From a virus, in the IMG/VR virus record IMGVR_UViG_3300047586_000368, positions 1 to 37,753 of that record: a DNA stretch of 37,753 nucleotides. The stretch is one strand, 5' to 3'. The notes beneath the pieces are model-generated. The model was not told the DNA's origin. It did not search any database and worked only from the letters and a program-made list of their open reading frames with translations. Shown here in pieces: positions 1 through 37,753 of the stretch (the first letter of the stretch is position 1; every line of letters begins with the position of its first letter). A program made the translations under genes and the position numbers.

Positions 1-371
1 AGCGTCGGCGGCTCCCTCTACGCACCGGGGGCGGACGCCCAGGCGTTTCCCGCGCTCACGAGCGTCGGCGGCTCCCTCGACGCACAGGGGGCGGACGCCC
101 AGGCGTTTCCCGCGCTCACGAGCGTCGGCGGCTACCTCGACGCACAGGGGGCGGACGCCCAGGCGTTTCCCGCGCTCACGAGCGTCGGCGGCTCCCTCGA
201 CGCACAGGGGGCGGACGCCCAGGCGTTTCCCGCGCTCACGAGCGTCGGCGGCTCCCTCTACGCACCGGGGGCGGACGCCCAGGCGTTTCCCGCGCTCACG
301 AGCGTCGGCGGCTCCCTCTACGCACCGGGGGCGGACGCCCAGGAGTTTCCCGCGCTCACGAGCGTCGGCGG
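1..371 (+). repeat. 60-bp coding tandem repeat array
   Basis: Six consecutive 60-bp units with only a few substitutions each, ending with a partial unit at 361-371. The period is a multiple of three and the frame stays open, so unit gain or loss would keep the protein in frame. The same unit recurs at 37660-37753. Confidence 0.97.
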
Positions 372-483
372 AAAGCCGTGGACGACGAGGTCGGCCGTCG
401 TCTTCGGCACGCCCTCGGCGGCTTCCCGGACTCCGTCCGGACGGACCTGCTGGCGGACGAGACGCCGGAGGAAGGGAAAATAG
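1..483 (+). CDS. LRR-like tandem-repeat protein, 3' part (5' part at 37600-37753)
   Basis: The reading frame is open from base 1. Six 20-residue units (pattern SVGG-x-L-x-A-x-GADAQAFPALT) are followed by about 37 unrelated, Arg/Thr/Pro-rich residues and a TAG at 481-483. Regular Leu, Gly and Pro spacing and a short strand G-x-L-x-A-x-G suggest a solenoid of leucine-rich-repeat type; this is inferred from pattern, not from a family match. Units differ only at residues 5 (S/Y), 7 (D/Y), 9 (P/Q) and once at 15 (A/E). No enzyme motif is seen. The start codon lies at the far end of the window (37600), so the true unit number is unknown. The tail after 371 is encoded by an inverted copy of part of the next gene, so the natural C-terminus may have been lost. 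A binding or adhesion role is plausible but unproven. Confidence 0.75.
   Translation, partial: SVGGSLYAPGADAQAFPALTSVGGSLDAQGADAQAFPALTSVGGYLDAQGADAQAFPALTSVGGSLDAQGADAQAFPALTSVGGSLYAPGADAQAFPALTSVGGSLYAPGADAQEFPALTSVGGKPWTTRSAVVFGTPSAASRTPSGRTCWRTRRRRKGK
386..469 (-). repeat. Inverted, permuted copy of 990-1072
   Basis: Bases 386-416 are the exact reverse complement of 990-1020 and bases 418-469 the exact reverse complement of 1021-1072. The two blocks keep the same left-to-right order in both places, so this is not a simple inverted repeat. It is a circularly permuted inverted copy of 83 bp of the downstream gene. It lies directly after the tandem array. Confidence 0.9.
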
Positions 484-485
484 GA

Positions 486-1529
486 TTGCCAACACGCATT
501 CCACCCGGTGAACCGTTCGTCCAGGTCCCCGATCGCCTGGTCCACGCGGTGGGCCTCGGGGCCGCCAGGCTGTGGGCCGCCGTCCGCTTCTGCCAGGACG
601 ATGGCGGCCGAGGCGTGGCCCTGTCTCTTTCGGCCTTGGCCGGGACCCTGGGCATCTCGACCCGGACAGCCAGGAGATATGCCGCCTCCCTTTCCCCCGA
701 CTGGCTCGTGGTCCGATCCACGGGGCGACAGAACATCTACTCCGCCCTCGTGCCGGTGGCCGGTAACATATTGAGAGTGGACAATGTTGGCCACTCAGAG
801 CGGCCAAAAGTGTCCACTCAGAGTGGCCAAAAGTGTCCACTCGCGCCGCCCCCCCCCTATAACCCCCCTGTAATAACAGCAGTAAAACAACAAGAGGGGG
901 GAGAGAGAGGCGGCAAGGCCCCCCCTCCCGGTGCTCGCGCACCCGAAGAAGAAACCACGGCGGCGGCAGCCGAGACCGAACGGGCGCTCGAGGGCGTGCC
1001 GAAGACGACGGCCGACCTCGTCCGGCGTCTCGTCCGCCAGCAGGTCCGTCCGGACGGAGTCCGGGAAGCCGCGGCCATCGTGATCGAGGACCTGCGTCTG
1101 AAACGATACTCGGGTCCGGATCTGCGTGACTTTCTCGCGGGGACGCCTGCCGTGGACGCCAAGGCGTATCGCCTCCGCACAATTGTGCCACCGTCGGTCG
1201 CCGCGATCCGTCGGGAATGGCTGCTCGACCACCTTCGCCGCATCGAGGCGGATCGGCTCTACCATGCCCGCCGGCGTCGGCCGGGTGGAACGGACAGCCT
1301 CGACGCCCTGGTGGATTTCGTGGACCTGGCGGCCGGGGTGCTGTACCTGCGGGAACGGATGGTGGTCCGCGACCGCGTGGAGGCGGGGTCGCGTTTCGAT
1401 CTGCGGACCCTGTCGGACCTTTCGGCCTGGACCTTCTCGCCGGAAGAGCCGACGCTCTTCCCCCTGCACGAGCAGCCGGCGGCGGCTCCGGTGGCGGCGC
1501 CAAGAGAGGCGGTGCGGCATGGCGGGTAA
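486..1529 (+). CDS. Replication-initiator-like protein with N-terminal HTH
   Basis: Predicted phage DNA-binding protein of about 347 residues. The N-terminal part (roughly residues 8-95) reads as a winged-helix/HTH region, with a helix-turn-helix-like LSALAGTLGISTRTARRY. A low-complexity Pro/Gly/Ala/Glu linker follows, then a helical, Arg-rich C-terminal part with no recognised motif. This layout, with repeats and AT-rich DNA in the linker-coding part, resembles lambda O-type initiators; similarity to O itself is not visible. I place the start at TTG 486 because GGAGGAAGGG lies 9 nt upstream and the encoded MPTRIPP start is mirrored by ATG-started MPSRIPP at 37551. A GTG at 378 would add residues encoded by the duplicated inverted segment. 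The gene runs straight on from the repeat gene (stop 483) and overlaps the next gene. Confidence 0.6.
   Translation: MPTRIPPGEPFVQVPDRLVHAVGLGAARLWAAVRFCQDDGGRGVALSLSALAGTLGISTRTARRYAASLSPDWLVVRSTGRQNIYSALVPVAGNILRVDNVGHSERPKVSTQSGQKCPLAPPPPYNPPVITAVKQQEGGERGGKAPPPGARAPEEETTAAAAETERALEGVPKTTADLVRRLVRQQVRPDGVREAAAIVIEDLRLKRYSGPDLRDFLAGTPAVDAKAYRLRTIVPPSVAAIRREWLLDHLRRIEADRLYHARRRRPGGTDSLDALVDFVDLAAGVLYLRERMVVRDRVEAGSRFDLRTLSDLSAWTFSPEEPTLFPLHEQPAAAPVAAPREAVRHGG
775..893 (+). other. Candidate replication origin: three 23-bp iterons plus AT-rich stretch
   Basis: Three phased 22-mers start at 775, 798 and 821 (period 23). All match GAGYGG-N10-CCACTC, so each is also an imperfect dyad; the last two differ from each other at one base. 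About 20 bp on, a relatively AT-rich stretch (858-893, TATAAC...AACAACAAG) interrupts very GC-rich DNA. Iterons followed by a melting region inside an initiator gene is the lambda-type origin plan. The function is inferred from this layout. Confidence 0.6.
990..1072 (+). repeat. Source segment of the inverted copy at 386-469
   Basis: These 83 bp lie inside the initiator-like gene, coding for the segment around PKTTADLVRRLVRQQVRPD, and reappear inverted in two blocks next to the tandem repeat array. Identity is complete over both blocks, so the duplication is recent or an assembly product. Confidence 0.88.
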
Positions 1530-3710: not shown

Positions 3711-4048
3711 GCGAGGCTAAACGCATCCAGCAGAAGCGCATCAAGGGTTGGCGGATGCCGGAAAACACGGTCTATGTCGGCCGGCCGACCGTCTGGGGCA
3801 ATCCGTTCAAGGGGCCGAATGCCGTGCGACTCTATCGGCTGCTGTGGCGGCGTCGGTGGAAACAGATTGAGCGATTGCTGCCCATCAATATCGCCGACCG
3901 GATCGGACTTTCTGTGCTGCTGCATTCCTGGCAGGAGCACCTGCCCGAACTTCGGGGCAAGGACTTGGCGTGCTGGTGTCGGCCCGATGTGCCCTGCCAC
4001 GCAGATGTACTGCTAAAATATGCCAATGCGCCGGAGCGAAAGCCATGA
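3707..4048 (+). CDS. DUF4326 domain protein
   Basis: 113-residue protein with the hallmarks of DUF4326: RIKGWRMPENTVYVGRPTVW, then GNPF, and near the C-terminus LRGKDLACWC and PCHADVLL. This small family is frequent in phages and mobile DNA and has no established biochemical function; the conserved Cys/His residues may bind metal. ATGA overlap with both neighbours. Confidence 0.9.
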   Translation: MSEAKRIQQKRIKGWRMPENTVYVGRPTVWGNPFKGPNAVRLYRLLWRRRWKQIERLLPINIADRIGLSVLLHSWQEHLPELRGKDLACWCRPDVPCHADVLLKYANAPERKP

Positions 4049-5829
4049 CCCTCCACATCGGCCGGTCGTTCAATTTGCCCCTCGACCTCATCACGCAGAC
4101 GGTGGCCATCCTGGCGAAGCGCCGGGCGGGAAAGTCTTACGCGATGCGCCGGATCGTCGAGCAACTTTTCCGGGCCGGTCAGCAGGTGGTCCTCGTGGAC
4201 CCCAAGGGCGATCAGTGGGGCATCCGGTCGGCCGCCGACGGACGCGGGCCCGGTCTCCCCATCGTGATCCTCGGAGGCGAACGCGGGGACATCCCCCTCG
4301 AACCGAGCGGCGGCGAGATCGTCGCCAAACTCGTCGTCGAAGAACGGACGAGCGTCCTCCTCGACCTCTCGCCGTTTCGCAAGTCCGAGGTGGCGACGTT
4401 TATGACGGGGTTCATGGAGGCCCTGTATCGCCTCAAGGCCCGCGAGGTCTACCGGACGCCGATGATGCTCGTCATCGACGAGGCCGACGCCATCGCCCCG
4501 CAGAAGCCCCAAAAAGGCGAAGAGCGGATGCTCGGCGCGGCCGAAGACATCGTTCGCCGCGGCGGGCAGCGCGGCATCGGGTGTATCCTGGTCAGCCAGA
4601 GGTCGGCGGTCCTCAACAAGAACGTCCTCACGCAGGCCCAGATGCTCGTGGCGCTTCGGACCATCGCCCCGCAGGACCTGGCCGCGCTCAATGCCTGGAT
4701 CGACGTGCACGGAACGCCCGACGAGCGGAAGGTGCTGATGGAGTCGCTGCCCGCGCTCCCGGTGGGCGATGCGTGGTTCTGGTCGCCGGGCTGGCCGACG
4801 GTGGACGGCATCTTCGAGCGGGTCCACGTCCTCCCCATTGAGACGTTCGATTCGGGGGCGACACCGAAACCGGGCGAGAAGCACGTCGAACCCAAGCACG
4901 CCGCCGACGTGGACCTGGAGGCGCTCAGGCGACAAATGGCGGCGACGGTCGAACGGGCCAAGGCCGAGGACCCGAAAGAACTCCGGCGCCGAATCGCGGA
5001 CCTCGAGCGCCAACTGGCGGCGAAGGGGAAGGCGGCGGCGGCAGCGAAGACGAACCCGGCTGCCGGGCAGGCGCAGATCGAACGGGCCGTCGCCAAGGCA
5101 CTTCAACATCGTCAGCAGGACGACGGGCTTTTCTTTTCGCTCGTAAAGCGGTCCGTGCCAGCGATCATCGAAGCGCTTAAGGCCCAGGAAGGCAGGCTCG
5201 AAAACCTGCTGCACAGCGCCACCGAGCGGACGAAGGGCGTTCGGGTTTTCCCGGACCGGCCGCGACCCGTCGCCCCCGCCGCGCCGCCGGAGCCGGCAAG
5301 GCCCGCGTCTCAAAATCGCGTTGAACCGCCGGAACCGTGGCCAGAACCAACCGGAGGGGTGAAGCCTCTTGGACGGAAAGGGAAATACCGGATGCTCGTG
5401 GCCCTGGCTCAGCAGCCACAGGGATTGTCGGCCGGGTCGCTTGGTATCCGGGCCGGTCTAAGTCCAAACAGCGGGACGTTCAGCAACTATCTGTCGGAAC
5501 TAAAATCGCCGGGCTGGGTCGAGGGCGAAAGAACCCACTTTCAGATTACCGAGGCGGGTTTCGCGGCGTTGGGGGATTACGAGCCACTTCCCACGGGCCG
5601 AGCACTCCTTGAGTATTGGCTGCACAAGATGGGCGACTCCGGGAAGGCCCGGATGCTCCAGGCGCTGGCCGAGGTTTATCCAAACGCACTGACGGCCGAG
5701 GAACTCGGTGCGGCGGCGAACATCTCGCCTAACTCCGGCACCTTCAGCAACTACCTGAGCGAACTTAAGACACTCGAACTCGTCCAGGGCGATCGCGGCG
5801 AACTGCGACTGGCGGAGGAACTGGCATGA
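4045..5829 (+). CDS. HerA/DUF87-type ATPase with duplicated C-terminal winged helix
   Basis: 594-residue P-loop ATPase of the HerA/FtsK-like helicase group. The P-loop is LAKRRAGKS (residues 23-31), lacking the usual first glycine, and Walker B is MLVIDEADA (141-149). A sensor-like region VSQRSAVLNKNVLTQ and a QxxL segment follow. An Ala/Lys/Glu coiled coil lies at about 295-345, a Pro-rich linker at about 405-440, then two winged-helix copies (about 445-510 and 540-594) sharing SPNSGTFSNYLSELK. Start ATG 4045 gives a 4-bp overlap with the DUF4326 gene. It probably remodels or translocates DNA during replication or maintenance. This is not the packaging ATPase, which is at 23407-25488. Confidence 0.85.
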   Translation: MTLHIGRSFNLPLDLITQTVAILAKRRAGKSYAMRRIVEQLFRAGQQVVLVDPKGDQWGIRSAADGRGPGLPIVILGGERGDIPLEPSGGEIVAKLVVEERTSVLLDLSPFRKSEVATFMTGFMEALYRLKAREVYRTPMMLVIDEADAIAPQKPQKGEERMLGAAEDIVRRGGQRGIGCILVSQRSAVLNKNVLTQAQMLVALRTIAPQDLAALNAWIDVHGTPDERKVLMESLPALPVGDAWFWSPGWPTVDGIFERVHVLPIETFDSGATPKPGEKHVEPKHAADVDLEALRRQMAATVERAKAEDPKELRRRIADLERQLAAKGKAAAAAKTNPAAGQAQIERAVAKALQHRQQDDGLFFSLVKRSVPAIIEALKAQEGRLENLLHSATERTKGVRVFPDRPRPVAPAAPPEPARPASQNRVEPPEPWPEPTGGVKPLGRKGKYRMLVALAQQPQGLSAGSLGIRAGLSPNSGTFSNYLSELKSPGWVEGERTHFQITEAGFAALGDYEPLPTGRALLEYWLHKMGDSGKARMLQALAEVYPNALTAEELGAAANISPNSGTFSNYLSELKTLELVQGDRGELRLAEELA

Positions 5830-22669: not shown

Positions 22670-23410
22670 TCAGGACACAAATGGCGCGTAGTGGTCGGCG
22701 TCGGCGCCGAGCCAGATCCGGAGTCGTGCGAGATCAGGGGCGTCCTCCATTCCAGGGAAGTCCGGCCTGTGACCTGAACCGATTCCGGCCCGCCCCGGCA
22801 TCCCCTTGATCCCGACCGCGAGCGGGTGGTCATCGGGCGTCGTAAAGATCCGTCGGTTGCCGCGCCAGGTTTGCCAGAGTGTCATGTCAACGAACGGGGT
22901 TTTCGACTGGTCCAGGATGGAGGCGAAGAACGCGACCGCCTGAAGCGTCACTCCGGTCTGGCACAGGCTCGCGTGGCCGGCGTTGTGCATATAGGCCCAT
23001 CGCCTCGTCTTGAGGTTGTAATAGTGAGGGTTGCCCTCTCCCACCAGCGGATCGGCGTCGAGCAAGCGCGACATAGTCGCCAGGTATTCCGGGCCGTACC
23101 AGTCATCGTCCTCGATGAACAGAATCTTTGACCCGCGGATCGGAAGCAAGAGTGCGAGGCGCAGGTTCCTAACCAGCGTGTGACCCTCGCCCGGCTCCGG
23201 CAGGCGCCGGACGTGTTCCTGGTTGAGCGTGGTGAGCGTCGGCGCCGCGCCGTCGTCCACGACGATCCATTGCGCCACGTCGAGCCACGCCGTCTGCCGC
23301 CTCATCCACCGCTCACAGAGCGCGAACGCCTGGGCCCGGTCGCCGGTGGGCGTGATGAGCGTCAAGGTCGCCTCGGCGGAGGCGGGGCGCGGGGAATCAG
23401 CCAGGCTCAT
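22670..23410 (-). CDS. GT-A type glycosyltransferase
   Basis: 246 residues from ATG 23410, chosen because it overlaps the terminase stop by ATGA. The N-terminal TLITPTGDRAQ plus WIVVDDG (about 50-54) is the nucleotide-sugar-binding start of a family-2-like GT-A fold, and LFIEDDDWYGPEYL (about 97-110) carries the DxD metal motif. No membrane segment, so it is cytoplasmic. Gene order (between terminase and head genes) is unusual for lambda-like phages, and direct repeats flank the gene, suggesting an inserted cassette. It might glycosylate a virion protein, the host surface or modified DNA; sequence alone does not decide. Confidence 0.8.
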   Translation of the reverse strand: MSLADSPRPASAEATLTLITPTGDRAQAFALCERWMRRQTAWLDVAQWIVVDDGAAPTLTTLNQEHVRRLPEPGEGHTLVRNLRLALLLPIRGSKILFIEDDDWYGPEYLATMSRLLDADPLVGEGNPHYYNLKTRRWAYMHNAGHASLCQTGVTLQAVAFFASILDQSKTPFVDMTLWQTWRGNRRIFTTPDDHPLAVGIKGMPGRAGIGSGHRPDFPGMEDAPDLARLRIWLGADADHYAPFVS

Positions 23411-23425
23411 CGGCCGAAAGGCGTG
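23405..23425. repeat. Right copy of 21-bp direct repeat flanking the glycosyltransferase
   Basis: Exact match to 22626-22646. This copy holds the native 3' end of the terminase gene and the ATG used by the glycosyltransferase. Confidence 0.8.
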
Positions 23426-25488
23426 GGACGCCATGGGTCTCTCCTTTCCCGGGTAGACTTGGGGGCTTCGGCGGCGCGGCGGGCCTCCTCGAGCTGGGCG
23501 GCGCGGAACTGCTCGTATTGTTCGAGCGTCGGCAGCAGGTTGACCTGGGCCATGTAGGCGGCGGCCGCCTGGTAGACCTCGCAGTCCCAGAGGTCGATGC
23601 GGGAACCTTCCTGCTTGGGTTTCCAGACCTCCTTCATCGCGGCGCCGCGACCTTCGACGACCTTGGCCACGCCGGCCAGGTGATGGTTGTATTCCGGGTC
23701 GTCGCGCTGGTTCAGGAACCAGATCTCCGGCCGCTTGTCGTCGGCCGTCGTGCCCTGTGAGGCCTGGGAGGCCAGGACATCGGCGAAGTGGCCGGTGTCG
23801 AGATAGGTCAGGGGGATGTGCCGTCGGCCTGCGGCGGGGTTTTTATGGGTCGGCTCGTCATCGAGCCAGCCCTTGCCCCGCCAAATGAACATCCCCGGCC
23901 GCGGCTGCGAGGCGCCTTTGATGGCGCGGACGCGGAGTTGCCGCGGCAGCGTCCACGTGTAGACCTGCATCGTTCGGGAGGCGCGATCCCCCTCGAGCCG
24001 GGTGCCGCCCGAATCAATCAGGACCAGTTCGGCTACCAGCGGAGCATAGGGCGGTTGACCGGTGGCCGGGTCCGGGGCGAACGACCACGCCTGGCCGAAG
24101 CAGATCCGGTCGAGCTCCTCGAACGTCTCGACTCGGCCGTGCCAGATGCGGGCCGATCGCATCTCGGGGCCCCAGGCGCGGACGACGATCCAGAAATGAT
24201 CGTGCTGCGTGTCGATCGTGATGAGCACCTTCGCCGTCCAGGGCGGCAGCAGGCCCTCGAGGAGCGGCGAGCGACGGCTCTTCTCGCTGTAGAAGTCGGC
24301 GTCGGTCCGGGCCACCTGGAGTTCGAACGGGGCACCCAGCGTCTGCGTGTGGAAGTCCATCGTCTTCGCGAGGTCCCCCTCGGCCCGCAGGAACTCGGCG
24401 ACGATGTCGCCCCAGGAAATCCACCGGACATAGAAGGGATCGATCTGGAGGCCCAGGCGGGTCCCGGCCGGCCACACAGGGACGGCCTCGGCGTCCTGGA
24501 TGCAGCCGTCGGCGCCGAGCCACGGCGGCAGGGTGCCGTCAACCACGGCGTTCCAGGATATCGGGGCCCCCGAAACCCAGCGGCCGCGGCGAGCCATCTC
24601 GTGCTTAGCCGACTCGTCGATCGTCTTGCCGCAGACGGCACACTCGTACCAGACGGCGCCGGGCTCGCGGAGGACCAGGGCGGCCGCGGCGATCTTGTCC
24701 TTGCCGCGGGCCTTGGGGAGTTTCTGCCATTTCAGGCGGCCGAAGACGAGCCGCTGAAACTTCCCGCAATGCGGGCAGGGCACGTGGTAGGTCAGGATCA
24801 TGTCGGAGGCCTCCACGAGCTGCGTGATTCGGCCGTAGCGATGCGTCGGCGTCGAGGAGTTGATCTGGCAGCGGCGGTCGCCGAAGGTCCGCAGGCGTTT
24901 CTCGGTCAGCGTGACGGCATCGGCCTCCACGCCGCTCCATTGGCGGAACTTATTGACCTCGTCGCACATGACCAGCCGCATGGGGTCCGACGCCGTCGAG
25001 GAAGGCGAGCCGGACCACATGAGATGCAACGTGAACCCGTTGTTGAGGCGGATCTGCCCCTTCTTCATTTCGTGGGCCTTGGCCGGCAGTAGATGTTTCA
25101 GCCGCGACGTCTGGCGAAAGAGCGGGAGCACGCGGTTCTCGACGATCTGCCGGCCCTTCTCGCGATCGGGCAGGGCCAGGCCGACGGGGTCAGGCTCGCA
25201 ATCCGCCAGGAATCCCATCAGATTTCGCAGGGCCTCGGAGACGCCGGCCTGGGCCGGCTTCTGCACGTTGGCCTGGACGACGCCTGGCGTGACAGGCAGA
25301 TCCATGATCGCCCGGAGGTATGGCGCGTTGTCGTTCGACCAGGGGCCTTCGATTGAAGACTGGCCGCGCGGGAGCGATCGATAGAGTTCCGCCCATTGTG
25401 ACGGTTTGATTTCCGGCGGCGGCGGCCAGGCCTGACGCTCTTCGGCATCCCACAGATCGATCTCGGGGGGTGTGGCCACGGCTGTCAT
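23407..25488 (-). CDS. Terminase large subunit, lambda gpA family
   Basis: 693-residue packaging motor of the gpA family. The ATPase part has a deviant P-loop KPAQAGVSE (77-85) as in lambda gpA-type proteins and Walker B RLVMCDEVNK (171-180). A zinc-ribbon insert CPHC...CAVC is at about 250-300. The nuclease part begins near VLITIDTQHDHFWIVVRAWG and includes ELVLIDSGG, with acidic residues for metal binding. It cuts and translocates DNA into proheads with the small subunit encoded just upstream (ATGA overlap). gpA-type terminases usually act at cos sites, so cohesive ends are expected; no cos could be pinpointed. Confidence 0.95.
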   Translation of the reverse strand: MTAVATPPEIDLWDAEERQAWPPPPEIKPSQWAELYRSLPRGQSSIEGPWSNDNAPYLRAIMDLPVTPGVVQANVQKPAQAGVSEALRNLMGFLADCEPDPVGLALPDREKGRQIVENRVLPLFRQTSRLKHLLPAKAHEMKKGQIRLNNGFTLHLMWSGSPSSTASDPMRLVMCDEVNKFRQWSGVEADAVTLTEKRLRTFGDRRCQINSSTPTHRYGRITQLVEASDMILTYHVPCPHCGKFQRLVFGRLKWQKLPKARGKDKIAAAALVLREPGAVWYECAVCGKTIDESAKHEMARRGRWVSGAPISWNAVVDGTLPPWLGADGCIQDAEAVPVWPAGTRLGLQIDPFYVRWISWGDIVAEFLRAEGDLAKTMDFHTQTLGAPFELQVARTDADFYSEKSRRSPLLEGLLPPWTAKVLITIDTQHDHFWIVVRAWGPEMRSARIWHGRVETFEELDRICFGQAWSFAPDPATGQPPYAPLVAELVLIDSGGTRLEGDRASRTMQVYTWTLPRQLRVRAIKGASQPRPGMFIWRGKGWLDDEPTHKNPAAGRRHIPLTYLDTGHFADVLASQASQGTTADDKRPEIWFLNQRDDPEYNHHLAGVAKVVEGRGAAMKEVWKPKQEGSRIDLWDCEVYQAAAAYMAQVNLLPTLEQYEQFRAAQLEEARRAAEAPKSTRERRDPWRPTPFGR

Positions 25489-26217: not shown

Positions 26218-28110
26218 TCAGACACGAATGACCCCTGCGGACCCCGTGGCGACGAGCGTCCCGGCCTGCCCGAGGATGGTCACTCCCAGGAGGATGTCTC
26301 CCGCACGAGCGAGCACGGCAGCCTGGTCTATTTCCAACTGTTCAGCCGCCTCTCTCGATTCCGCCGCCGCGAAGTCATACGTGCCGGCCTGGCCGAGGAT
26401 CGTCGTGTCGTCCTTGATCGAGGCTGCGGCGGCAAGCACCACACCCTGGTCGGTGACTAGTTGGCCGGCCGCCGCTGCTTCTTCGGCTGCTACGAAGTCG
26501 AACGTGCCGGCTTGGCCAAGTATGGTTGCATCATCTTTGATTGATGCCGCTGCCGCCAGGACAACGCCTTGGTCCGTCGACAACTGTTCGGCCTTGCTCG
26601 TCGCGGTGGTGGGGTAGGAGCCGGCCTTCGTCAAGATGGTATGCCCCGTGACGATGAACGTCTTCTGCGCATCCACGGCGGCCTGGTCGGCCGCCAGCTG
26701 TTCGGCCTTGCTCGTGGCCGTCGTCGGGTACGACCCGGCCTTCGTGAGGATGGTGGTGCCGATGACGATGTTCGCCTTCTCGGCGTCCACGGCGGCCTTG
26801 TCCGTCACGAGTTGCCCGGCTGCCGCTGCGGCTTCCGCTGCCGTGAAATCATAGAGGCCGGCCTGTCCGAGGATCGTCGCGTCGTCTTTGATGGACCCTG
26901 CCGCCGCGAGGACAACGCCCTGATCCGTCGCCAACTGAGCCGCCTGGCTCGTGGCCGTGGTGGGATAGGTCCCCGTGGTGGCGTCCACGTCCACTCCATC
27001 CTTGACGTCCGTGGCAGCCGGGATGTGGGCCGTGCCGGTCCGCGCCGCCGTGTCGTAGGAGGTGCCGTTACGCACGTCGGTTGCCGCGGGCGACACCATC
27101 GTGGAAGTCACCTTGTTCGTGCCGGTCATGGTGTACGCATTCGGCGCAAAGGTGCAGTTGAAAACAGCGTGCGCAACGGGATCATGCACGTCGATCACCG
27201 TCTCGGCCGGAGAACCGCCGGAGTTGAAGTCTATCGAGCCCCCGCCGAACGTCGTGTTCGCGGCGAGGAATACGGTCGCTCCAAAGTGACCCGCCTGGGC
27301 GTGGTCGGACGCAAACACCACCCCCGCACCGATGTGGATTTGAGCGGCGGCCAGCGACGGGTCCGACTCCGCCACCCTGCCAGCCCACGAGTGCTCGTTG
27401 AATCGGGCGTTCGCGCCCACCGTGCCACACTGCACGAACACATCGTCGTTGAAGACCGCGTTAGTCCCGATGATGCACGCGTCGCAGATTCGCACATTCC
27501 CTGCACCCGCCGCCGAGTTGCTGAACGTGGCGTAGTTGCCAACAGTAGTATGGCCGAGGATGGAGATATGCACGATGGCCGCGTCGGACGAGTCCCAGGA
27601 GAGGTAATCACCGATGGTTCCCTCCAGGAACGAATCGATGGCCGTCAGGTGATTCCCGATGACGCCGGTGGGCATGTTCCGCGAACCCAACATGCTCACG
27701 TGGTCGCCAAGCGTGCCGTAGTTGGTGCCTTCATACGTGAACACAACGGTCGCCCCGTTCAGGGCCACACCGCCCCAGCCTTGTTCTTTGGGGAAGTCCA
27801 GAAGGTACTTCGCAGGACGCCCCACCCTAAGTGTGCCGTCGGCCGCGATGGTGATGGCCGCTGTGATGGTGGGCGCCAAGGTGCCTTTATCACCGAATCC
27901 TGTGGAGTCGTAACCCGCAAGCGTCATCGTCGGAGCAGCGGTATCAGGAGGAATGGCACTCGCGGGTGACGCGGCACCTAAAACATACACATAGTCTCCG
28001 TCCGTCGGCGCTCTCCCTGCCTGCTGCGTATGAGCCGCGTCGGTCCACCAGTTGCCCGTGACCGTGTTCCAGTGGGCGTCCGCCCCGGATTTGTACCAAT
28101 AGATATTCAT
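26218..28110 (-). CDS. Tail fibre-like protein with C-terminal repeats
   Basis: 630 residues. The N-terminus (MNIYWYKSGADAHWNTVTGNW) opens a Gly/Ala/Thr-rich beta-solenoid-like region (about 30-340). From about residue 345 a series of modules follows: ATDVRNGTSYD, ATDVKDGVDVDATTG, then repeated blocks of the kind QLATDQGVVLAAAASIKDD + ILGQAGTYDF, alternating with AVDAQKT...ILTKAGSYPTTATSKAEQL. This fits a trimeric fibre shaft built by repeat duplication. It sits upstream of the terminase genes, away from the other tail genes. ATGA overlap with the preceding gene. Confidence 0.75.
   Translation of the reverse strand: MNIYWYKSGADAHWNTVTGNWWTDAAHTQQAGRAPTDGDYVYVLGAASPASAIPPDTAAPTMTLAGYDSTGFGDKGTLAPTITAAITIAADGTLRVGRPAKYLLDFPKEQGWGGVALNGATVVFTYEGTNYGTLGDHVSMLGSRNMPTGVIGNHLTAIDSFLEGTIGDYLSWDSSDAAIVHISILGHTTVGNYATFSNSAAGAGNVRICDACIIGTNAVFNDDVFVQCGTVGANARFNEHSWAGRVAESDPSLAAAQIHIGAGVVFASDHAQAGHFGATVFLAANTTFGGGSIDFNSGGSPAETVIDVHDPVAHAVFNCTFAPNAYTMTGTNKVTSTMVSPAATDVRNGTSYDTAARTGTAHIPAATDVKDGVDVDATTGTYPTTATSQAAQLATDQGVVLAAAGSIKDDATILGQAGLYDFTAAEAAAAAGQLVTDKAAVDAEKANIVIGTTILTKAGSYPTTATSKAEQLAADQAAVDAQKTFIVTGHTILTKAGSYPTTATSKAEQLSTDQGVVLAAAASIKDDATILGQAGTFDFVAAEEAAAAGQLVTDQGVVLAAAASIKDDTTILGQAGTYDFAAAESREAAEQLEIDQAAVLARAGDILLGVTILGQAGTLVATGSAGVIRV
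26290..26960 (-). repeat. Degenerate coding repeats in the fibre gene
   Basis: About six related blocks of roughly 100-110 bp encode the pattern QL-x-x-D-x-AAVxAxxxxIxxxxTILxxAGxY. Neighbouring blocks share long identical stretches of DNA, pointing to recent duplication. Borders are approximate. Confidence 0.7.
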
Positions 28111-28499
28111 GGCTTCACCGCCTCTTCCGACGCCGCCTGCGCAGCCGCGGCCACCTTGGTCACAATCAATTCCTTCGCCGTGGCCGTCTGCGTTGACCAG
28201 TCCGCCGTCGGACCGTCAACGAGGGCGCCACTCTGGAGCGCCTCCGCGATGGCCTCCGCCGCGACAGTCGTCTTCGCCTCGACGGTGTCCAGCGCCGCAG
28301 CCAGCCCGCCCTTTACGTGGGGGTGGGCCAGGTCCAGCGGGAGCAGCCCGTCCGCGATGTCCTCGGCCACGTCCACCAGGTCGGGCCGCGCCGCGCGAAT
28401 CCCAACAGCCTCCCGCAGCCGCATGATGGCCTGGACCAGCGTAGCCACCATGACCCGATCCTCCGGCGCGACCTTCGCCAATTCGTCTTCAAATTTCAT
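28107..28499 (-). CDS. Hypothetical virion-region protein
   Basis: 130 residues from ATG 28499, preceded by AGGAG at 8 nt. Helical, acidic, Ala/Val-rich; residues MKFEDELAKVAPEDRVMVATLVQ. No motif recognised. It overlaps the tail fibre start by 4 bp, so a fibre-associated or chaperone role is possible but unproven. The gap 28500-28645 holds only a 21-23-codon open frame that I do not call. Confidence 0.6.
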   Translation of the reverse strand: MKFEDELAKVAPEDRVMVATLVQAIMRLREAVGIRAARPDLVDVAEDIADGLLPLDLAHPHVKGGLAAALDTVEAKTTVAAEAIAEALQSGALVDGPTADWSTQTATAKELIVTKVAAAAQAASEEAVKP

Positions 28500-36933: not shown

Positions 36934-37473
36934 ATGGACATCATCGTCACGACGCCGAAGTCGGAGATGGCCAATGCCGCCCGCGAGGCGGCCGACTGCA
37001 TCGCCGCCGGTGGCGGGGAATACTTCCGGCGGTTCCATCCACGCCAAGCCCCCACGATCGGCGACGGCGACCGCGTCTACTACGTCGAGGACGGTTTTAT
37101 CCGCGGTTTTGCCCTTGTGACGCAGGCCGAAGAACGTGCCCCCATGTGTTGCGACACGACCGGCGCACGCTGGCCGGCAGGGTTCTACATTTTCATGGAC
37201 GCGGCCTCCTGGCAGTGGATCAGGCCGATCAAGGTGAAAGGGTTCCGGGGATTTCGCTACGCCGGGTCGGCGCTCGGTACGACGGCCAAACGCGACGCCA
37301 TCCTCATGGGCGACCCGGCCCTGCGGTGGGTGGACGTCCTGGTCGTCGGCGGTTGGCTCGACCCGCGGCCGCGGTCCTGCCGCGTCTGCGGATGCACCGA
37401 CCGTTTCGGTTGCCCGCCGCCCCGGGGTCCGTGTTCGTGGATCGAGCCGGACCTTTGCAGCGCCTGCCGGTAA
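36934..37473 (+). CDS. Hypothetical protein with C-terminal zinc finger
   Basis: 179 residues, CGGAG 7 nt before ATG. The N-terminal half includes a PUA/ASCH-like pattern (GDRVYYVEDGFIRGFALV) and the C-terminus a Cys-rich knuckle, CRVCGCTDRFGC, CSWIEPDLCSAC, of a type frequent in phage proteins. Possibly RNA- or modified-base-binding; inference only. Confidence 0.65.
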   Translation: MDIIVTTPKSEMANAAREAADCIAAGGGEYFRRFHPRQAPTIGDGDRVYYVEDGFIRGFALVTQAEERAPMCCDTTGARWPAGFYIFMDAASWQWIRPIKVKGFRGFRYAGSALGTTAKRDAILMGDPALRWVDVLVVGGWLDPRPRSCRVCGCTDRFGCPPPRGPCSWIEPDLCSACR

Positions 37474-37549: not shown

Positions 37550-37599
37550 GATGCCATCACGCATTCCGCCGGATCGGCGGAAAAAAAAGGAGACTTAAA
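37550..37599 (+). other. 15-codon leader frame resembling the initiator gene start
   Basis: ATG 37551 with AAGGAGG upstream encodes MPSRIPPDRRKKKET and stops at 37598, two bases before the repeat-protein ATG. The first seven codons mirror the initiator-like start at 486 (MPTRIPP), with matching DNA upstream including GGAGGA. It looks like a leftover gene start separated by insertion of the repeat-protein gene. It could also serve as a translated leader. The gap 37474-37599 holds nothing else recognisable. Confidence 0.5.
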
Positions 37600-37753
37600 A
37601 TGATCCACAAAGAGGTGCAAGTCACAGGGGATGTCGATTGGAAGCAGGGAGATACGTTTCCCGCGCTCACGAGCGTCGGCGGCTACCTCGACGCACCGGG
37701 GGCGGACGCCCAGGCGTTTCCCGCGCTCACGAGCGTCGGCGGCTACCTCGACG
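37600..37753 (+). CDS. LRR-like tandem-repeat protein, 5' part (3' part at 1-483)
   Basis: Starts at ATG 37600 with AAAGGAG 7 nt upstream. A 19-residue lead (MIHKEVQVTGDVDWKQGDT) passes directly into repeat units (FPALTSVGGYLDAPGADAQA) and runs off the window in frame. No signal peptide or membrane segment, so the protein would be cytoplasmic or virion-borne unless exported otherwise. Joining to 1-483 is inferred; the two ends do not overlap exactly, so at least part of one unit is missing between them. Confidence 0.8.
   Translation, partial: MIHKEVQVTGDVDWKQGDTFPALTSVGGYLDAPGADAQAFPALTSVGGYLD

What the first reader, a model, noticed from the sequence alone, without database searches (positions are those of the whole stretch)
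1..371. Repeat protein varies only at non-synonymous sites on one face of a predicted strand
Across eight full or partial units every difference changes an amino acid: TCC/TAC, GAC/TAC, CCG/CAG, GCG/GAG. No synonymous change is seen in the other codons. The main variable residues are 5, 7 and 9 of the unit, alternating with Leu6 and Ala8, so side chains would point to one face as in LRR binding surfaces. This suggests selection for a changing binding surface, in a gene placed in the early operon rather than with tail genes. No reverse transcriptase or template repeat is present, so a diversity-generating retroelement is not the cause.
Basis: partly seen in the sequence, partly recalled or inferred. 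Interest (0 to 1): 0.75.

Follow-up and report, generated by a model that had tools for sequence, protein, structure and literature searches.

The report
Phage repeat protein, one variable face
A phage gene encodes a stack of near-identical 20-residue repeats in which almost only three outward-facing residues change, and the same three positions change in dozens of other phages, which suggests that phages use this stack as an evolvable binding surface.

Summary
The array is real, but it is only part of a gene. The window is a 37,753-bp linear virus record that starts and ends inside the same 60-bp array: RBS and start codon at 37586-37602, units at 37672-37753 and 1-371, stop at 481-483. The unit number is therefore unknown (at least eight). 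The four variable codons (5, 7, 9, 15) are read correctly, but four non-synonymous changes of four prove nothing alone.

The idea was tested on relatives: 66 viral loci, 14 genome loci, E. coli prophages, Edwardsiella phages, EBPR podovirus 1. In 56 arrays, single-base codon differences between units at 5/7/9 are 184 non-synonymous to 8 synonymous (neutral expectation 0.75-0.80 non-synonymous); other positions give 159:155. A second set (16 arrays) gives 63:4 against 102:68. Genes with near-identical flanks differ in unit number and in residues 5/7/9. AlphaFold2 predicts a confident beta-solenoid with a strand at residues 6-7. The window has no reverse transcriptase; one of 37 related records has one.

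Best reading: an early, probably intracellular, LRR-like binding protein whose exposed face is under diversifying selection while unit turnover keeps the rest uniform. Its target is unknown.

The parts
37586..37592 (+). Ribosome-binding site (AAAGGAG) of the repeat gene
   Evidence: AAAGGAGACTTAAAATG found once, at 37586-37602
37600..37753 (+). 5' part of the repeat gene: start codon, N-terminal segment MIHKEVQVTGDVDWKQGDTFPALT, one full unit (37672-37731) and one cut unit (37732-37753), then the end of the record
1..371 (+). Array of six full 60-bp units and an 11-nt part unit; hypervariable codons 5, 7, 9 of each unit
   Evidence: profile of 17 other arrays scores it 152 bits against 36 for the best shuffled control
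361..483 (+). C-terminal end of the repeat gene (SVGGKPW..., stop at 481-483); the GKPW cap resembles GKKW/GKPY caps of relatives L011 and L043
   Evidence: the resemblance is by eye
384..472 (+). Inverted copy of 989-1072 in circularly permuted order (89 nt of an 84-nt unit, one mismatch), inside the C-terminal tail; origin unknown, perhaps an assembly or template-switch scar
378..1529 (+). Downstream neighbour: ORF with a weak HTH match, perhaps a replication protein (its true start may be further in)
36934..37473 (+). Upstream neighbour; its 61% identical relative in phage L006 is not followed by a repeat gene

Best explanation
The feature is the gene of a leucine-rich-repeat-like beta-solenoid protein carried as an accessory early gene by a phage with an integrase. 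Each 60-bp unit makes one 20-residue coil. Inward residues (2, 6, 8, 13, 16) and turns are fixed, while residues 5, 7 and 9 flank the short parallel strand and form one outward face, in a small alphabet (5: mainly S/Y/W/D/N; 7: D/Y/N; 9: R/S/E/G/Y). Unequal recombination between identical units expands, contracts and homogenises the array, and selection for altered binding keeps changing residues 5/7/9. Most likely the protein binds an intracellular partner (a host or rival-phage protein) early in infection or in lysogeny, and the partner's evolution drives the change. Shown: gene layout, family membership, codon pattern, unit-number change between near-identical genes, predicted solenoid. Inferred: exposure, binding, cytoplasmic site, identity of the partner, recombination as the mechanism.
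For: Codon test: 184:8 at 5/7/9 against 159:155 elsewhere in 56 arrays, P 3e-10 with equal rates and 3e-15 with kappa 3; 88:3 in the 34 most homogeneous arrays; 63:4 against 102:68 in a second set. E. coli prophages ET846, ET791 and LHM10-1 keep N- and C-terminal parts but carry 14, about 9 and 6 units with an otherwise constant 60-bp backbone and no synonymous change. L051 has one exact 60-bp unit more than L047 with flanks of 90/90, 240/240 and 799/800 nt identical. AlphaFold2 pLDDT 92, pTM 0.86, strands at unit positions 2 and 6-7. Window array fits the family profile at 152 bits. Early-operon position in Edno5, GF-2, E. coli prophages and EBPR podovirus 1; window late genes on the other strand.
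Against: No partner and no function are known. Exposure of 5/7/9 was inferred, not measured. Arrays are partly related, so the P-values are optimistic. Some genes are stable: CP52E and LHM10-1 have the same array, L024-L026 are identical in three samples. In the second set positions 12, 14 and 18 also vary without synonymous change. Some short-read unit counts (for instance GF-2, one unit) may be assembly collapses.
Confidence: 0.6

Rival explanations
1. Relaxed constraint only: residues 5/7/9 are surface positions without a function, so they drift while structural residues are held by purifying selection.
For: Other positions are clearly under purifying selection (159:155, below neutral), and surface residues are usually freer.
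Against: Drift predicts 75-80% non-synonymous changes; 96% is observed (184:8) and 94% in the second set (63:4). The alphabet is narrow: at position 7 GAY, TAY and AAY dominate and CAC (His) occurs once although one step away.
Confidence: 0.17
2. Targeted mutagenesis: a mutator such as a diversity-generating retroelement hits these codons.
For: Change is confined to three codons, sometimes with all three bases replaced (CGC to GAA in E. coli).
Against: No reverse transcriptase in the window and only one in 37 related records; the changes are not limited to adenines; third codon bases are left alone, which a mutator would not know to do.
Confidence: 0.04
3. Modular code reader: each unit recognises one element of a polymer (glycan, repeated protein or nucleic acid) in the manner of TALE repeats, so residues 5/7/9 spell a target rather than fit one surface.
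For: Uniform backbone, few variable residues per unit, unit reshuffling and strongly changing unit number.
Against: The proteins are acidic (pI 4.05-4.96), which speaks against nucleic-acid binding; no target is known; some homologues have one unit or none.
Confidence: 0.13
4. Assembly artefact: a mixed or collapsed repeat at a contig end, with no real variation.
For: The record breaks in the array at both ends; 31 of 65 related viral ORFs are cut by a contig end; an odd inverted fragment follows the array.
Against: Complete E. coli chromosomes and phage Edno5 carry intact genes with the same pattern.
Confidence: 0.04

Closest known systems
Leucine-rich repeat (LRR) and receptor L domain solenoids
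   Same: About 20-residue coils; relatives score in Pfam as LRR_1 (PF00560, L027, 37.7 bits, cut-off 20.6), LRR_4 (PF12799) and Recep_L_domain (PF01030, L023 and L028) above cut-off; predicted parallel strands; variable residues flank the strand as in the LxxLxLxx surface of LRRs (own knowledge).
   Different: The window itself has no Pfam or PHROG LRR match; the motif is SVGGxLxLxG; units are nearly identical at the DNA level.
Variable lymphocyte receptors of jawless fish and plant NLR LRRs
   Same: LRR surfaces in which strand-flanking residues vary under diversifying selection (own knowledge); VLR-B appears as a weak sequence match (E 0.32).
   Different: No somatic assembly, no immune cell; variation seen between phages, in a uniform array.
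Polar flagellar motor LRR chain, PDB 8z5u
   Same: Closest chain of known structure by sequence (E 1.1e-34); structural alignment Z 7.8 over 102 residues.
   Different: Diverged, non-identical units in a cellular structure; not a phage gene as far as the record tells.
HyvI/HyvII (LasAI/LasAII) of 'Ca. Liberibacter asiaticus' prophages (PMC3708911)
   Same: Prophage genes with nearly identical tandem repeats described as LRR; repeat number varies between isolates.
   Different: 44-residue repeat of another sequence, reported as autotransporters.
TAL effector repeats
   Same: Uniform repeats with change confined to a few fixed residues and variable unit number (own knowledge).
   Different: 33-35-residue helical repeats that bind DNA; here a 20-residue acidic beta-solenoid.

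Membership tests
Phage 20-residue SVGGxLxLxG solenoid family (L010-L075, Edno5, EBPR podovirus 1) | Sequence profile match over the array | tested here: met
   152 bits with a profile that excludes the window; best of 500 unit-shuffled controls 36 bits; 67% identity to L010
Phage 20-residue SVGGxLxLxG solenoid family (L010-L075, Edno5, EBPR podovirus 1) | Within-array change concentrated at unit positions 5, 7, 9 and non-synonymous | tested here: met
   Window: three of four variable codons are 5, 7, 9, none synonymous; family 184:8
Leucine-rich repeat (LRR) proteins | Match to a curated LRR model above its cut-off | tested here: inconclusive
   No match for the window; relatives L014, L027, L040 match LRR_1 or LRR_4 above cut-off
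Leucine-rich repeat (LRR) proteins | Solenoid with a parallel strand in every repeat | tested here: met
   AlphaFold2 model, pLDDT 92, strands at unit positions 2 and 6-7; predicted, not solved
Diversity-generating retroelement target | Reverse transcriptase in the same element | tested here: not met
   No PF00078 match in the window; one in 37 related records
Diversity-generating retroelement target | Adenine-specific substitutions against a template repeat | tested here: not met
   Changes at 5/7/9 include G/T, C/G and C/T classes
TALE-like DNA-recognition repeats | 33-35-residue helical repeat with a variable di-residue | tested here: not met
   20-residue beta-solenoid unit without helices
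Pentapeptide-repeat proteins | Pentapeptide-repeat fold or profile | tested here: inconclusive
   No Pfam match; structural alignments to MfpA, NP275 and QnrB1 at Z 7-8.2 may mean only a common arrangement

The most novel reading that the evidence does not exclude
A widespread phage-encoded combinatorial binder: near-identical LRR-like units reshuffled by recombination give each phage a different exposed face, a receptor repertoire spread over a phage population and aimed at intracellular defence or rival-phage proteins.
Probability: 0.35. Interest if true: 0.85.

Novelty: new variant of a known kind. Interest (0 to 1): 0.62.

Why it matters
Phage genes that change quickly at a binding face mark points of conflict with the host. 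Tail fibres and DGR targets are the usual examples; this family is different because it lies among early genes, shows no obvious signal peptide, needs no retroelement and is annotated 'hypothetical' in most records. The codon rule (5/7/9) gives a simple way to recognise members, and the arrays are natural libraries of solenoid binders. The finding also warns that about half of these genes in metagenomic phage records are cut at contig ends, so they are easily missed.

Tried and rejected
Window array against phage DNA: no match. Search for the window's own unit in viral contigs: none, so variation in this phage's own population could not be tested. Profile A2 was too variable for the search for related loci. 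Dropping the finding as an assembly artefact was rejected because complete isolate genomes show the same pattern. A diversity-generating retroelement was rejected. The thought that all four window changes being C/A or G/T points to a mutational signature was rejected: the family spectrum is mixed. The Citrobacter plasmid homologue (L079) has diverged units and is at least 99% identical in 109 of 110 plasmids; it is not a uniform array and was not used for or against array variation. Foldseek against the PDB gave no match at E <= 0.001. Literature searches found no description of the family; the library holds open-access papers only, so this is weak evidence of novelty. The EBPR podovirus paper (PMC3097231) does not use the word leucine in its main text.

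Full report
What is in the window. The window is a whole virus record of 37,753 bp, classed as linear. A 60-bp tandem array fills 1-371 (6.2 copies, 97% matches, no indels). The same array is present at the other end, 37655-37753, 98% identical. A start codon with a ribosome-binding site stands at 37586-37602 and opens MIHKEVQVTGDVDWKQGDTFPALT followed by units; the block at 1-371 continues into 'GKPW...' and stops at 481-483. So the finding describes the second half of one gene that the assembler broke, most likely in a circular or circularly permuted genome (inference). The unit pair at the 3' end (Y-D-P, Y-D) is not found in the 5' block, so the ends do not simply overlap and at least eight units exist.

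The observation. The variable codons are read correctly. In the order of the units the residues at 5-7-9 are YDP, YD(cut) | SYP, SDQ, YDQ, SDQ, SYP, SYP, and the last full unit also has Ala15Glu. No synonymous difference exists. With four variable sites this is not more than chance would often give, so relatives were needed.

Relatives. A three-sequence alignment of the window array, Edwardsiella phage Edno5 and EBPR podovirus 1 found 66 viral loci and 14 bacterial genome loci. A profile from 17 other arrays scores the window array at 152 bits, the best of 500 unit-shuffled controls at 36. Arrays sit between diverse N- and C-terminal domains. Of 65 related viral ORFs, 31 are cut by a contig end: the array breaks assemblies in general.

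The codon test. For each array I joined the distinct codons at each unit position by a minimum spanning tree and classed the single-base steps. In 56 arrays (viral loci, window, EBPR podovirus 1 and Edno5) the counts at 5/7/9 are 65:3, 64:1 and 55:4 (non-synonymous: synonymous), 184:8 together, against a neutral non-synonymous share of 0.80 (equal rates) or 0.75 (kappa 3); P is 3e-10 and 3e-15. All other positions give 159:155, below neutral, as purifying selection predicts. The 34 most homogeneous arrays give 88:3. The second set (genome loci and three E. coli prophages, 16 arrays with enough units) gives 63:4 against 102:68 (P 0.0035 at equal rates, 9e-5 at kappa 3); there positions 12, 14 and 18 also vary. 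Arrays are partly related, so the P-values are optimistic, but the two collections agree.

Near-identical genes, different arrays. In E. coli, the prophages of ET846 and ET791 share the last 225 nt exactly and 128 of the first 132 nt, but carry 14 and about 9 units; the constant codons hold no synonymous change, and nearly all differences are in codons 5 (W/S), 7 (Y/D/E) and 9 (R/E/S). LHM10-1 has six units, A34 one. L047 and L051 are identical in the first 90 nt, the last 240 nt and 799 of 800 nt downstream, yet L051 has one exact extra 60-bp unit. L019 and L021 share the last 240 nt but have different arrays. Enterobacterial homologues range from no variable unit (L103) to 14 units and are rare: 7 of 392 genomes of one family, 5 of 5,426 E. 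coli genomes. Against very fast change, CP52E and LHM10-1 share an identical array and 4,237 of 4,237 nt around it, and L024/L025/L026 are identical in the compared stretches from three samples.

Structure. AlphaFold2 on the window array with 17 other arrays gives pLDDT 92 and pTM 0.86, with strands at unit positions 2 and 6-7 in every unit. A whole relative (L037) gives pLDDT 91.7, with a beta and helical C-terminal domain. The best structural alignments are receptor L domains, pentapeptide-repeat proteins and synthetic solenoids at Z 7-8.4, which may mean only a common arrangement. The strongest sequence match of known structure is the LRR chain of a polar flagellar motor, PDB 8z5u (E 1e-34). 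Outward pointing of 5/7/9 is inferred from the strand and from the hydrophobic, constant residues 6 and 8; coordinates could not be read here.

Context. Terminase, portal, head and tail genes of the window lie on the minus strand; the repeat gene lies on the plus strand between neighbours that include a ParB-like gene and an ORF with a weak HTH match. In Edno5 and GF-2 the gene lies in the early operon between the repressor and the recombination genes, in the E. coli prophages between the repressor and exoX, and in EBPR podovirus 1 it is upstream of recT and exo. A related phage (L006) that has the upstream neighbour at 61% identity has no repeat gene, so the gene is an accessory.

Mechanism. 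Shown: uniform units, gain of an exact unit, change concentrated in three codons with amino-acid effect. Inferred: unequal recombination keeps the backbone uniform and changes unit number; selection for altered binding maintains diversity at 5/7/9; the protein acts inside the cell because its start shows no signal peptide by eye, and acts early because of its operon. A retroelement is not needed and is absent from the window. The partner is unknown; host defence proteins or rival phages are the first guess from the early accessory position.

Verdict. I rate it a new variant of a known kind: LRR-like solenoids with diversifying exposed residues are known, but uniform, expandable arrays of this type as early accessory genes of many phages were not found described in the papers that could be searched.

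Noticed in passing
window 384-472 and 989-1072: Directly behind the array lies an 89-nt inverted copy of a downstream stretch, in circularly permuted order (84-nt unit, one mismatch); template switch or assembly scar.
   Followed up: partly
window 774-842: Three copies of a 23-bp palindromic repeat (AGAGTGGCCAAAAGTGTCCACTC) inside the ORF at 378-1529; iteron-like, perhaps a replication origin.
   Followed up: no
L003 (EBPR podovirus 1) 1-883: The deposited record begins inside the same kind of array with no gene annotated there; the C-terminal domain seen in L010 continues in another frame (annotated as gp1), so the array gene seems frameshifted or mis-sequenced.
   Followed up: partly
G030 (record of L058) 27596-28219: The only related record with a reverse-transcriptase match (E 1.3e-19); whether it belongs to a diversity-generating retroelement was not checked.
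   Followed up: no
L079 3794-4636: A plasmid gene with diverged LRR-like units, found in 110 plasmid records of Citrobacter, Klebsiella, Enterobacter and others, nearly all at least 99% identical; next to a RES/Xre toxin-antitoxin pair.
   Followed up: partly
window 3970-5829: ORF with HerA/DUF87 ATPase matches and a partial match to a phage terminase family, in addition to the clear terminase at 23407-25488 on the minus strand.
   Followed up: no
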